The notes beneath the pieces were generated by a model that was not told the origin of the DNA, made no database searches, and was given only the letters and a program-made list of their open reading frames with translations. DNA of 64,000 bases, from the NCBI GenBank assembly GCA_002721175.1, contig PBJR01000011.1, forward strand, positions 12,326-76,325, written 5' to 3'. The DNA comes from Flavobacteriaceae bacterium (lineage in GTDB: Bacteria; Bacteroidota; Bacteroidia; Flavobacteriales; Flavobacteriaceae). This document shows, one piece after another, positions 23,187 to 28,157 of this stretch (position 1 is the stretch's first letter; each line of letters opens with the position of its first letter). The translations under genes were made by a program, and so were the position numbers.

Positions 23187-24250
23187 CATTAAATATTGCT
23201 GTTTTACCTGGGGATGGTGTGGGTCCAGAAGTCATTGCTCAAGCATTAAAAGTTATGAAGGTAATTAGTATAAAGTTTAATCACAATTTAAATTTTTCCT
23301 TCGCTAATTTAGGTGCTATTGCAATAAAAAAGGAAGGAGTCCCACTTCCTAACAATACACTCAAAATCTGTAAGAACTCTGATGCTATTTTATTTGGTGC
23401 GATTGGAGACCCAAAATATGACAATAACCCCACAAAAAAAATTCGTCCAGAACAAGGATTATTAGAATTACGTAAACAATTAAACTTATTTGCTAATATT
23501 AGACCTGTAAAAGCTTATGAAACCACTTTAAAAAACTCGCCTCTTAAAAAGAAAGTAATTTGTGGAACAGATATTTTAATATATCGAGAATTAACTGGTG
23601 GATTATATTTCGGCGAAAAAAAAGTAACTAATGACGGTAATTATGCCTCAGATTTGTGTTCATATGGCAGACAAGACATCGAAAGAATAAGTGAACTTGC
23701 CTTTAAAGCTGCAAAAAACAGGAATAATAAACTAACCCTGATTGATAAAGCTAATGTATTAGAAACATCCAGGCTTTGGAGAAAAGTTGTCAAGGAAATT
23801 AGCAATAAATATCCTGAGGTTAAATTAGATTTTTTATTCGTTGACAATGCTGCTATGCAAATAGTTCAAAATCCTAAACAATTTGATGTGATTTTAACAG
23901 AAAATTTATTTGGTGATATAATTAGTGACGAGGCAAGCGTTATTGCAGGCTCAATTGGTTTGCTAGCCTCCGCATCAGTTGGTGATAAACATGCTCTTTT
24001 TGAACCTATTCATGGATCTTACCCTCAGGCGACTGGGAAAGGAATCGCAAACCCAATCGCATCCATTTTGTCTGTTGCTATGTTATTTGAACACTTTTCT
24101 TTAAGTGAGGAGGCCGCTATAATTAAAGAAGCTGTTGATGCCTCTTTAAAGTCAGGGATAACCACACCGGACCTTAACAATAAGTCTAGTAATATAACAA
24201 CTGAAAAAGTTGGTAGCTTTATCATAGATTATATTGATAAAATTGATTAA
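23183..24250 (+). CDS. leuB: 3-isopropylmalate dehydrogenase
   Basis: [54 protein letters not shown]. Confidence 0.97.
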
Positions 24251-24311
24251 TTGAAATTTACAGCTCAAAATTTAATTTGAAATAATCACTTCTGTTAAAT
24301 TTTATGAAATA

Positions 24312-24342
24312 AAAAACCCCACAAAAAGTGTGGGGTTTTTTT
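24312..24342. terminator. Bidirectional Rho-independent terminator between convergent leuB and rng
   Basis: aaaaaccccaca-aaaag-tgtggggttttttt: GC-rich stem flanked by A- and T-tracts. Confidence 0.9.
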
Positions 24343-24343
24343 A

Positions 24344-25891
24344 TCAAAACTTAATTGATTTGCCTTCATCGGTTTTAAACCGATATTCTAGATATGTGTA
24401 AGCATCTCTTGGCATTATTTTGATCCAAATCTTATATCTCAAAAACCATTTCATCCGGATCGATATAAAACCTTTTGTCAAAAAAGCTGCAATGAAAGGA
24501 TGAATATTCAAGGTCAATTTTTTCAAACCTCTTTTAACAATTGAGTCTAACTGATTATTAATTTTATCAATTAAAACAATAGGAGCCTCAATTTCGGATC
24601 CAAAAGGGCCATTTGGATTTGGCTCATTTGTCTTTATATTCATCTCTGGACGAACTCTCTGACGAGTTATTTGAATCAGCCCAAATTTACTTGGAGGTAA
24701 AATTTTATGTTTAGCACGATCTTCCTTCATTTCATCTATTAAATGATTAAATAGCTTTCTTCTATTTTCTGAGCTATTCATATCAATGAAATCCACAACT
24801 ATTATGCCCCCCATATCGCGAAGCCTGAACTGTCTCGCTAACTCTTTTGCCGCTATCAAATTAACTTCAATAGCAGTGTCTTCCTGATTTTTTTCCTTAC
24901 TAGTTCTATTCCCACTATTAACGTCAACCACGTGCAGAGCTTCAGTATGTTCAATTATTAAATAAGCTCCTTTAGGCAAACGAACAGTTTTACCAAAAGA
25001 AACTTTTATTTGCCGTTCAATGCCAAACTTCTCAAAAATAGGAGTTTTAGAGTTATAATATTTAACTATATCTTCTTTGTGAGGAGCAATTTCAAAAATA
25101 TAATCTTTAATTTTTGCACATAAATCGATGTTGTCAACAAATATTTTGGTGAAACTATCATTAAAAATATCCCGCAGAATTGAGGAAGCTTTATTCATCT
25201 CACCCAAAATTTTTGAGGGTGTTTGTGCATTTGGAATACGACTACAAACGTCTTCCCACTTTCTGTAAAGATTTTGTAAATCTCTATCAAGTTCAGCTAC
25301 TTTCTGACCTTGAGCTACAGTCCTAATTATTACTCCGAATCCCTTAGGAGTAATACTTTTGACTAAGCGCTTGAGCCTATCTTTTTCTGAGCTACTTTCG
25401 ATCTTTTGGGAAATTGAAATTCTGCTTGAAAATGGTACAAGGACTAAATAACGTCCAGCGAACGAAATTTCTGAACTTATCCTAGGACCTTTTGTTGAAA
25501 TAGGTTCTTTAACAATTTGAACCAGTAACGTTTGATTAGATTTGATAACCTTATCGATTTTACCATCTTTATCGATATCTTTCTCGTATACAAAATCATT
25601 TAGAGAAAAATTTTTATTTTTTCCTGTGCTTACACTTTTTATAAATTTCATTAAAGATAAAAGTCTTGGTCCTAAATCGTGATAGTGCAAAAATGCATCT
25701 TTTTGATAACCAACATTAACAAATGCAGCGTTTAGGCCAGGAATAGCTTTTCGTACTTTGGCTAAAAATACGTCGCCAACAGAAAATTTATTATTGTCTT
25801 TATCTTTTTGAAACTCAACTAGTTTTCCTTCTTTTAACAAGGCAAAATCAACATTGTCAGAATTAGAGCGAATTATTAGTTCTTTATTCAT
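24344..25891 (-). CDS. rng: Ribonuclease E/G family protein (RNase G)
   Basis: S1-like N-terminus, ALHVVDVNSGNR, RDMGGIIVVDFIDM, GLIQITRQR. Start placed at MNKELIIRS (25891), because the track start (25939) lies upstream of a TACATTTG -7 element. Confidence 0.93.
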   Translation of the reverse strand: MNKELIIRSNSDNVDFALLKEGKLVEFQKDKDNNKFSVGDVFLAKVRKAIPGLNAAFVNVGYQKDAFLHYHDLGPRLLSLMKFIKSVSTGKNKNFSLNDFVYEKDIDKDGKIDKVIKSNQTLLVQIVKEPISTKGPRISSEISFAGRYLVLVPFSSRISISQKIESSSEKDRLKRLVKSITPKGFGVIIRTVAQGQKVAELDRDLQNLYRKWEDVCSRIPNAQTPSKILGEMNKASSILRDIFNDSFTKIFVDNIDLCAKIKDYIFEIAPHKEDIVKYYNSKTPIFEKFGIERQIKVSFGKTVRLPKGAYLIIEHTEALHVVDVNSGNRTSKEKNQEDTAIEVNLIAAKELARQFRLRDMGGIIVVDFIDMNSSENRRKLFNHLIDEMKEDRAKHKILPPSKFGLIQITRQRVRPEMNIKTNEPNPNGPFGSEIEAPIVLIDKINNQLDSIVKRGLKKLTLNIHPFIAAFLTKGFISIRMKWFLRYKIWIKIMPRDAYTYLEYRFKTDEGKSIKF

Positions 25892-25915
25892 AATGTTAAT
25901 TTTGGTCTTTACATG

Positions 25916-25923
25916 CAAATGTA
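25916..25923 (-). promoter_or_regulatory. Putative -7 element TACATTTG for rng, inside an 8-bp inverted repeat
   Basis: Reverse complement of caaatgta, 24 nt upstream of ATG 25891; inverted repeat CTTTACAT-GCAA-ATGTAAAG at 25907-25926. Confidence 0.5.
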
Positions 25924-25977
25924 AAGATTGATTATACAATAATTCTTTTAAATATCATAAGTGAAATTATGATTAAA

Positions 25978-26002
25978 ACTTGTAGCTAATAAAACTACAA
26001 GT
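25978..26002 (-). terminator. Probable terminator hairpin downstream of the HU / 29-aa basic protein unit
   Basis: ACTTGTAG-ctaataaaa-CTACAAGT; on the minus strand the hairpin is followed by TTTTAATC. Confidence 0.5.
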
Positions 26003-26101
26003 GTCACAGGATCTTATCCCGATTAATTCATTTATTCGCAAAGGCATACGAAATAACGAATTTAATGTCAATGAACGTAAAAGTAATACAAAGTTATTGG
26101 T

Positions 26102-26191
26102 TTACTTTTTCTTGTGTCGATTTGCACGACGCCTTTTCTTACGCTTATGCGTTGCAACCTTGTGTCTTTTTCTTTTTTTACCACTTGGCAT
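26102..26191 (-). CDS. 29-aa extremely basic protein MPSGKKRKRHKVATHKRKKRRRANRHKKK; candidate small ribosomal protein (bL38 or COX24/AURKAIP1/bS22-like)
   Basis: ATG to TAA translated manually on the minus strand; 10 nt after the HU stop region begins the spacer (ATG is 20 bp downstream of the HU stop); about 65% Lys/Arg/His; below the length cutoff of the ORF track. Confidence 0.85.
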   Translation of the reverse strand: MPSGKKRKRHKVATHKRKKRRRANRHKKK

Positions 26192-26211
26192 ACTTTATAA
26201 ACTTTCTTTAT

Positions 26212-26505
26212 TTAATTATTAACTCGAACTTTTTTTTTAACAACTTCAAGAAAAATTTTCGACGGTTTAAAGGATGGAATGTTATGCGCTGGGATTTTGA
26301 TTGAAGTATTTTTTAATATATTTCTACCAATCTTCTCAGCGCGTGTTTTGATCACAAAACTACCAAAACCCCTGAGATAAACATTATTACCTGACTGCAA
26401 TGATTCTTTTACTTCTCGCATAAAAGATTCTAAGGTTGCTAGCACATCAGATTTTTCTATACCTAAATCGTCGGATATTTTTGTTACTATTTCTGCCTTC
26501 GTCAT
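26212..26505 (-). CDS. HU/IHF family DNA-binding protein
   Basis: MTKAEIVTKISDDLGIEKSDV...GNNVYLRGFGSFVIKTRAEKIGRNI. Confidence 0.95.
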   Translation of the reverse strand: MTKAEIVTKISDDLGIEKSDVLATLESFMREVKESLQSGNNVYLRGFGSFVIKTRAEKIGRNILKNTSIKIPAHNIPSFKPSKIFLEVVKKKVRVNN

Positions 26506-26545
26506 AATTACTAAATTATAAAAGTAAATGATACCTGAGGGGATG

Positions 26546-26553
26546 CAAATATA
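26546..26553 (-). promoter_or_regulatory. Putative -7 element TATATTTG for the HU / 29-aa protein unit
   Basis: TAnnTTTG match 40 nt upstream of the HU ATG. Confidence 0.5.
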
Positions 26554-26611
26554 TGTATTTTAAATTCAATATATCAAACCAAAATAATTAAAATTTAATC
26601 CTTTAATATTT

Positions 26612-26619
26612 TATTTTTG
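26612..26619 (+). promoter_or_regulatory. Putative -7 element TATTTTTG for mutY
   Basis: Exact TAnnTTTG match 15 nt before ATG 26635. Confidence 0.5.
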
Positions 26620-26634
26620 TAAATATTGAAAAAA

Positions 26635-27675
26635 ATGGATTTTAATTTAAGGGTAGCTGAATGGTATAGATCTCACAAAAGACCTCTACCTTGGAGAGAA
26701 TCAAAAGAGCCCTATAAAATTTGGTTATCTGAAGTTATACTTCAACAAACTCAAATTAAACAGGGATTACCCTATTATCTAAAATTTATAAAAAAGTACC
26801 CTTCAGTATTTGAGTTAGCAAAAGCCAGCGAGGATGAAATTTTAAAAAATTGGCAAGGGCTTGGCTATTACAGTCGGGCACGTAATCTTCATACCACAGC
26901 CAAACATATTGTTGATAAATTTGATGGTATTTTCCCTAATTCATATAAAGATTTAATTAAACTAAAAGGAGTTGGAGATTATACAGCAAGTGCTATTGCA
27001 TCTATTTGCTTTGAAGAATCCGTTGCAGTTTTAGATGGAAATGTGTACAGAGTGCTGTCCAGGTATTTTGGAATTCATACTCCGATTAACACAGGAAAAG
27101 GGTTTAGAGAATTTAAAACATTAGCAACAAAATTACTGCCATTAAGTCAATTTGGTGACTACAATCAAGCTGTTATGGATTTTGGGGCGAAACAATGCAA
27201 GCCTGTTTCACCTGACTGCAGAAAATGTACACTCAGTGAAAAATGTATTGCATTATCTGATGGCTTTGTTAAAACTTTACCCATCAAAATAAAAAATAAT
27301 AAAATTTTAAAGCGTTATTTCAATTTCATAATATTAAAAACGATTAACAATAGAACAATACTTGAGAAAAGATTACAAAAAGACATATGGAAAGAACTAT
27401 ATCAATTCCCCCTCATTGAAACAAAAGTGTCCATTACTAAAAAATCTCTAATTCTTAATGATGATTTTAAATCAAGGTTTGGAAATAAGCTAAAATCAAT
27501 TAAGCTGTTGAACTCAAAACAAATAATCCAAAATCTATCACATCAAAAACTTCATATTAAGTTTTGGGAAATTCAAATTGACAAAAAGTTAAAAAATAGT
27601 ATTGATTGGAAACAAACCAAAAGTTATGCATTACCAATTGTAATTGCAGAATTTATTAATAATTTTAGTAAATAA
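26635..27675 (+). CDS. mutY: A/G-specific adenine glycosylase
   Basis: LPWRESKEPYKIWLSEVILQQTQI, GVGDYTASAIASI, VLDGNVYRVLSR, Fe-S C-x6-C-x2-C-x5-C. ATG at 26635 preferred over the TTG at 26626. Confidence 0.95.
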   Translation: MDFNLRVAEWYRSHKRPLPWRESKEPYKIWLSEVILQQTQIKQGLPYYLKFIKKYPSVFELAKASEDEILKNWQGLGYYSRARNLHTTAKHIVDKFDGIFPNSYKDLIKLKGVGDYTASAIASICFEESVAVLDGNVYRVLSRYFGIHTPINTGKGFREFKTLATKLLPLSQFGDYNQAVMDFGAKQCKPVSPDCRKCTLSEKCIALSDGFVKTLPIKIKNNKILKRYFNFIILKTINNRTILEKRLQKDIWKELYQFPLIETKVSITKKSLILNDDFKSRFGNKLKSIKLLNSKQIIQNLSHQKLHIKFWEIQIDKKLKNSIDWKQTKSYALPIVIAEFINNFSK

Positions 27676-27722
27676 ATTATCAATTTTAAATATATTTATA
27701 TAAACTTTCTTAAAAAACAAAC

Positions 27723-28157
27723 ATGTCAGGAACACTGAACAAAGTTATGCTAATTGGCCATCTGGGTGACAAAGTTAAAATTCACTATTTTGACGATAAA
27801 AATTGCATAGGCAGATTTTCAATAGCAACTAACGAAACTTACATTAATAAACAAACTAATGAAAAGATAACAAACACTGAGTGGCACAATGTGATAGTTA
27901 GAAATAAAGCTGCCGAAATCTGTGAAAAATATCTAAATAAAGGAGATCGTGTATATATTGAGGGTAAAATCAAAACTAGAAAATGGCAAGATGACAAAGG
28001 AGATGACCGCTACTCAACCGAAATAGCATGCACTGACTTTACTTTCTTAACAAACAAAACAGAAGCAAGTTTAGGATCAGTTAACGATCAAAAAGACACA
28101 TTTCATATCGGGGAAAATGACTCAAAAGAGGGCAAAAAAACAGATTTACCATTTTAA
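27723..28157 (+). CDS. ssb: Single-stranded DNA-binding protein
   Basis: OB-fold sequence (NKVMLIGHLGDKVKI, EWHNVIVRNKAAEICEKYLNKGDRVYIEGKI) and acidic DLPF tail. Confidence 0.95.
   Translation: MSGTLNKVMLIGHLGDKVKIHYFDDKNCIGRFSIATNETYINKQTNEKITNTEWHNVIVRNKAAEICEKYLNKGDRVYIEGKIKTRKWQDDKGDDRYSTEIACTDFTFLTNKTEASLGSVNDQKDTFHIGENDSKEGKKTDLPF

What the first reader, a model, noticed from the sequence alone, without database searches (positions are those of the whole stretch)
26102..26191. Unlisted 29-aa Lys/Arg/His-rich gene between HU and rng: candidate small ribosomal protein
Seen: the minus strand encodes MPSGKKRKRHKVATHKRKKRRRANRHKKK*, starting 20 bp after the HU stop, with a hairpin plus T-run about 100 bp downstream. 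The ORF track omits it (below the length cutoff) and lists two ORFs antisense to it. Knowledge: the K/R/H pattern resembles very short ribosomal proteins such as the COX24/AURKAIP1 (mS38/bS22) group, and the Flavobacterium johnsoniae ribosome structure revealed an extra protein, bL38. Inference: this is a ribosomal protein of one of these types. I cannot tell which from sequence alone.
Basis: partly seen in the sequence, partly recalled or inferred. Interest (0 to 1): 0.7.

Follow-up and report, generated by a model that had tools for sequence, protein, structure and literature searches.

The report
Tiny ribosomal protein bS22 gene
The overlooked 29-residue gene next to HU is the Bacteroidota version of bS22, a known small-subunit ribosomal protein already seen in ribosome structures, so it is real but ordinary; the one new twist is that large phage contigs carry their own copies.

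Summary
Window 26102-26191(-) encodes MPSGKKRKRHKVATHKRKKRRRANRHKKK, 20 bp after the HU stop. It is a conserved gene: 57/57 relatives and 197/198 genomes sampled across the phylum have it. Twenty-three genomes encode the identical 29 residues while differing by a mean of 14.7 of 90 bases, with no second-position change. The peptide is 28/29 identical to the Flavobacterium johnsoniae 70S chain 7jil_5 (bS22) and matches Borrelia bS22 (8fmw_V). It is not bL38, a different strand-containing 50S protein near uL6; the PDB gives the identical chain both names. Pfam COX24_C does not reach it, nor the solved F. johnsoniae and Borrelia chains, so that test is blind here. The gene is second in a HU-bS22 unit with a conserved promoter and a hairpin before rng. 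Likely role, by homology: a bent helix in the h27/h44/h45 pocket of 16S rRNA that touches 23S rRNA. This is already known. Side result: three IMG/VR phage contigs (two of 231 and 297 kb) carry their own bS22, closest to one Flavobacteriales family and apparently under purifying selection; I found no report of phage-encoded bS22.

The parts
26102..26191 (-). bS22 gene, 29 codons plus TAA, ATG start
   Evidence: translation; 28/29 identical to 7jil_5; conserved in 57/57 and 197/198 genomes; codon pattern
26212..26505 (-). HU family DNA-binding protein, first gene of the unit, 20 bp upstream of bS22
26546..26577 (-). promoter-like site TTG-N21-TATATTTG, Bacteroidota type, first base 72 bp upstream of the HU start
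   Evidence: near-identical site at 65-70 bp in all 9 congeners and at 60-100 bp in many family members
25974..26006 (-). hairpin with short T tract between bS22 and rng, probable terminator
   Evidence: MFE -11.9 kcal/mol, z -4.9; hairpin plus T tract in this interval in many relatives
24344..25891 (-). rng (ribonuclease G/E type), downstream gene
26635..27675 (+). mutY-like adenine glycosylase, divergent from HU
   Evidence: ORF (ATG inside the listed TTG ORF); divergent in most loci; name from sequence inspection
26001..26304 (+). two antisense ORFs (26001-26222, 26065-26304), shadow frames, not genes
   Evidence: length and sequence not kept in congeners

Best explanation
This is the gene for ribosomal protein bS22 of a flavobacterial genome. 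Shown here: a conserved, selected 29-residue basic protein, an orthologue of the F. johnsoniae bS22 chain, in a HU-bS22 unit. Taken from published structures by homology: it folds as a bent helix, inserts into the cavity formed by 16S rRNA helices h27, h44 and h45 near the decoding centre, and touches 23S rRNA (H67/H68), adding an intersubunit contact. Inferred: it stiffens the h44/h45 region during initiation and translocation, and is co-transcribed with HU, ending at the hairpin before rng.
For: 28/29 identity to 7jil_5 and full-length match to 8fmw_V, sharper with a profile (E 3e-15 and 1e-11). Phylum-wide single-copy conservation, also in a 0.34 Mb reduced genome (L079) where no HU was found beside it. 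Purifying selection: 247 third-position and 50 first-position differences, 0 second-position, among identical proteins. Synteny, conserved promoter and a hairpin before rng. Position and contacts of bS22 in F. johnsoniae, Borrelia and Cutibacterium ribosomes.
Against: No expression or ribosome data for this organism. One of 198 phylum genomes (G201) has no match even with the profile. The same chain sequence carries the name L38 in at least one PDB entry, which I read as a labelling clash. I did not locate a separate bL38 gene in this genome.
Confidence: 0.97

Rival explanations
1. It is bL38, the extra 50S protein first reported in F. johnsoniae.
For: At least one PDB entry that shares the 7jil_5 sequence names it 50S ribosomal protein L38.
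Against: bL38 sits near uL6/uL14 and H95, has beta strands, and Borrelia bL38 residues reach past 50. Borrelia bL38 could not be found with the F. johnsoniae bL38 sequence, whereas this peptide matches Borrelia bS22 directly.
Confidence: 0.02
2. It is a non-ribosomal basic peptide, such as a nucleoid-associated or antimicrobial peptide, linked to HU.
For: Operon with HU; C. acnes bS22 inhibits growth of bacteria in disc assays (PMC10085706).
Against: A near-identical chain was built into the F. johnsoniae 70S map; bS22-rng linkage remains in a reduced genome where no HU was found beside it. An extra-ribosomal role is not excluded.
Confidence: 0.01
3. Chance ORF of A/T-rich DNA with a lysine-rich translation; the gene is on the other strand.
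For: Two longer antisense ORFs overlap it.
Against: Frame and residues are conserved phylum-wide, antisense ORFs are not.
Confidence: 0.001

Closest known systems
bS22 of Flavobacterium johnsoniae (PDB 7jil chain 5)
   Same: 28 of 29 residues, same ends bar one extra Lys
   Different: Ala21 is Arg here; one residue shorter
bS22 of Borrelia burgdorferi (PDB 8fmw chain V)
   Same: full-length alignment, THKRKKxRRxNRHK core
   Different: about 71% identical; GUG start in Borrelia
bS22 of Actinomycetota (M. smegmatis, C. acnes)
   Same: same rRNA pocket; 37% identity between C. acnes and F. johnsoniae bS22 (PMC10085706)
   Different: not reached by profile search from the Bacteroidota side
mS38/AURKAIP1/Cox24 and eL41
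   Same: occupy the same rRNA pocket
   Different: mS38 is longer; Pfam COX24_C does not match; no sequence hit from this protein

Membership tests
bS22 | sequence homology over the full length to a structurally placed bS22 chain | tested here: met
   7jil_5 E 4e-11, 8fmw_V E 2e-6; profile E 3e-15 and 1e-11
bS22 | about 28-35 residues, more than half Lys/Arg | tested here: met
   29 residues, 17 Lys/Arg (59%)
bS22 | single copy, conserved within its phylum | tested here: met
   57/57 and 197/198 genomes, one match each
bS22 | bound in the h27/h44/h45 pocket of the 30S | not testable with these tools
   published for F. johnsoniae, Borrelia, C. acnes; no structure for this organism
Pfam COX24_C (PF08213) | score above the curated cut-off of 23 bits | tested here: not met
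   no match; solved F. johnsoniae and Borrelia chains also give none, and 9i5v_10 scores 11.8 bits
bL38 | longer strand-containing protein of the 50S near uL6/uL14 | tested here: not met
   29 residues, and the match is to bS22 of Borrelia; bL38 description from PMC10618245. A bL38 sequence itself was not available to compare

The most novel reading that the evidence does not exclude
Large phages of Flavobacteriales carry their own bS22 and may swap it into host ribosomes, as proposed for phage bS21. Three IMG/VR contigs from three metagenomes (L100; L101, part of 297 kb; L105, part of 231 kb) encode MSGAKKKK-type bS22; a fourth (L104, with tail and tape-measure genes) encodes a weaker relative. 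The probability given is for bS22 genes truly residing on phage genomes; the swap into ribosomes is inference and less certain (about 0.4). The window gene itself is not phage-borne.
Probability: 0.75. Interest if true: 0.5.

Novelty: already known. Interest (0 to 1): 0.2.

Why it matters
For the window gene: mainly annotation. It is a ribosomal gene below usual length cut-offs that current Pfam and NCBIfam models miss, and the PDB gives the same chain two names (S22 and L38). For the side finding: if large Bacteroidota phages supply their own bS22, that adds a ribosomal protein close to the decoding centre to those phages are reported to encode, in a phylum whose ribosomes ignore Shine-Dalgarno sequences and whose phages already carry bS21. 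Surveys of viral ribosomal proteins that rely on Pfam profiles would miss it because the Pfam model does.

Tried and rejected
Pfam and NCBIfam scans of the peptide and 18 relatives: no usable match. L102, L103, L109, L110 pattern hits are chance or unrelated frames. Stretches of the huge phages LR745206 and LR756502 (about 49 kb of each) hold no bS22 motif. A bS21 scan of viral contigs did not return the bS22 contigs. Rfam: nothing in 24000-28000. bS22 = bL38 considered and rejected. The original F. johnsoniae structure paper is not held.

Full report
OBSERVATION. The minus strand of 26102-26191 encodes MPSGKKRKRHKVATHKRKKRRRANRHKKK followed by TAA. HU (26212-26505, minus) ends 20 bp before it. 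The annotation gap is a length cut-off effect. The overlapping plus-strand ORFs (73 and 79 codons) change length and sequence in the congeners examined, so they are shadow frames.

IS IT A GENE. A whole-genome search found one copy in this genome, a copy in all 57 genomes of the relatives set and in 197 of 198 well-completed genomes drawn across the phylum. The exception, G201, also failed a profile search. Among 96 loci read in detail, 23 encode the identical 29 residues; these differ by a mean of 14.7 of 90 bases. Compared with this genome the differences fall at third positions (247) or first positions of synonymous codons (50), none at second positions. Invariant residues across 18 divergent relatives are M1, K6, K8, K11, H15, K16, R17, K18, K19, R25, H26, K27.

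WHAT IT IS. Against all PDB chains, the best match is 7jil_5, the F. johnsoniae 70S chain, 28 of 29 identical, E 4.2e-11. Next are 9i5v_10, named AURKAIP1/COX24 domain-containing protein, and 8fmw_V, Borrelia bS22, E 2.1e-6. A profile of 18 Bacteroidota sequences gives E 3e-15, 7e-14 and 1e-11 for the same three. That 7jil belongs to F. johnsoniae is from my own knowledge of the structure. The 7jil_5 sequence occurs in five entries under two names, S22 and L38. The Borrelia structure paper (PMC10618245) separates them: bS22 is the short helical 30S protein, more alike between Borrelia and F. johnsoniae than to M. smegmatis; bL38 is a 50S protein near uL6, uL14 and H95 with beta strands, and could not be found in Borrelia by sequence from F. 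johnsoniae. The peptide here is therefore bS22.

THE PFAM TEST. The peptide does not match it, nor does anything in the genome up to E 10. This is not evidence against bS22: the solved F. johnsoniae and Borrelia chains also give no match, and 9i5v_10 reaches 11.8 bits against a cut-off of 23. I do not file it under COX24_C.

NEIGHBOURHOOD. HU-bS22-rng on one strand with mutY divergent is the usual arrangement in the order; in several families of the order about 0.5 kb separates HU from bS22. In other orders of the class, rng still follows while HU is about 0.9 kb away or more; beyond the class no rng match was found beside bS22. In L079, a genome of 0.34 Mb, no HU match was found in the stretch but bS22-rng remains, which argues for selection on bS22 itself. 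A site TTG-N21-TATATTTG, the Bacteroidota promoter form as I know it from the literature, lies 72 bp upstream of HU here (26546-26577) and at 65-70 bp in all nine congeners. A hairpin at 25974-26006 separates bS22 from rng; most congeners have a different hairpin directly after the bS22 stop. I infer a HU-bS22 transcript; no expression data were available.

MECHANISM. By homology, not shown here: bS22 lies in the cavity of 16S h27, h44 and h45 and contacts 23S H67/H68, the site used by mS38 in mitochondria and eL41 in archaea and eukaryotes. Yeast mS38 stabilises h44 and affects initiation on particular mRNAs (PMC6582356). A stiffening role for h44/h45 is the likeliest function. Whether it relates to Shine-Dalgarno-independent initiation in Bacteroidota is open.

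SIDE FINDING. A degenerate DNA pattern for the bS22 core found two IMG/VR contigs, and looser patterns added two more plausible hits. L100:8820-8912(-), L101:9109-9201(+) and L105:3342-3434(+) encode 30-residue MSGAKKKK-type proteins. L101 is part of a 297,623-bp contig and L105 of a 231,285-bp contig. L100 and L101 bS22 differ by 13 bases but one residue. They share further genes pairwise. L100 carries an endolysin and a protein whose best phage matches, 44% and 39% identical, are in 635- and 642-kb metagenomic phages; L101 has a phage-type DNA ligase. The phage peptide matches bS22 chains in the PDB (E 2e-4), and its nearest chromosomal relatives, 76-87% identical, are all in one Flavobacteriales family, f2. 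L104 has a TTG-start relative (MPSDRKWHRKKVKKHKRKKKRRKQRHKSKNR) on a contig with major tail and tape-measure genes; its match to Borrelia bS22 is weak (E 0.0035). A paper search for bS22 with phage found no report of phage-encoded bS22, and the survey of viral ribosomal proteins (PMC6375957) does not mention it. Caveats: the contigs were called viral by IMG/VR, only 5-14 kb of each was read, no terminase or capsid gene was seen on the L100, L101 or L105 stretches, and some neighbours, such as a conserved 174-residue protein, also occur in bacterial genomes.

VERDICT. Observation confirmed, interpretation correct and now resolved to bS22. The gene is ordinary and already known; the phage-borne copies are the part worth a further look.

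Noticed in passing
L101:9109-9201, L100:8820-8912, L105:3342-3434: bS22 genes on IMG/VR phage contigs (297 kb, 18 kb, 231 kb), closest to Flavobacteriales family f2; apparently under purifying selection.
   Followed up: partly
L104:9557-9652: bS22/eL41-like 31-residue peptide with a TTG start on a phage contig downstream of major tail genes and upstream of a tape-measure gene.
   Followed up: partly
PDB 7jil_5, 9oz9, 9ozn, 9ozz, 9p0e: One chain sequence is deposited under two names, S22 and L38.
   Followed up: partly
L079 (G049, 0.34 Mb genome): A highly reduced Flavobacteriales genome keeps bS22-rng; no HU match was found in the 4-kb stretch read.
   Followed up: no
G201: The only phylum genome of 198 sampled (99% complete) without a detectable bS22, also by profile.
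   Followed up: partly
window 26101 downward compared with L002-L010: Most congeners have a hairpin directly after the bS22 stop (ACTGATAAAGTAGC...GCTACTTTTTCAGT or close); this genome lacks it and has another hairpin about 95 bp further down.
   Followed up: no
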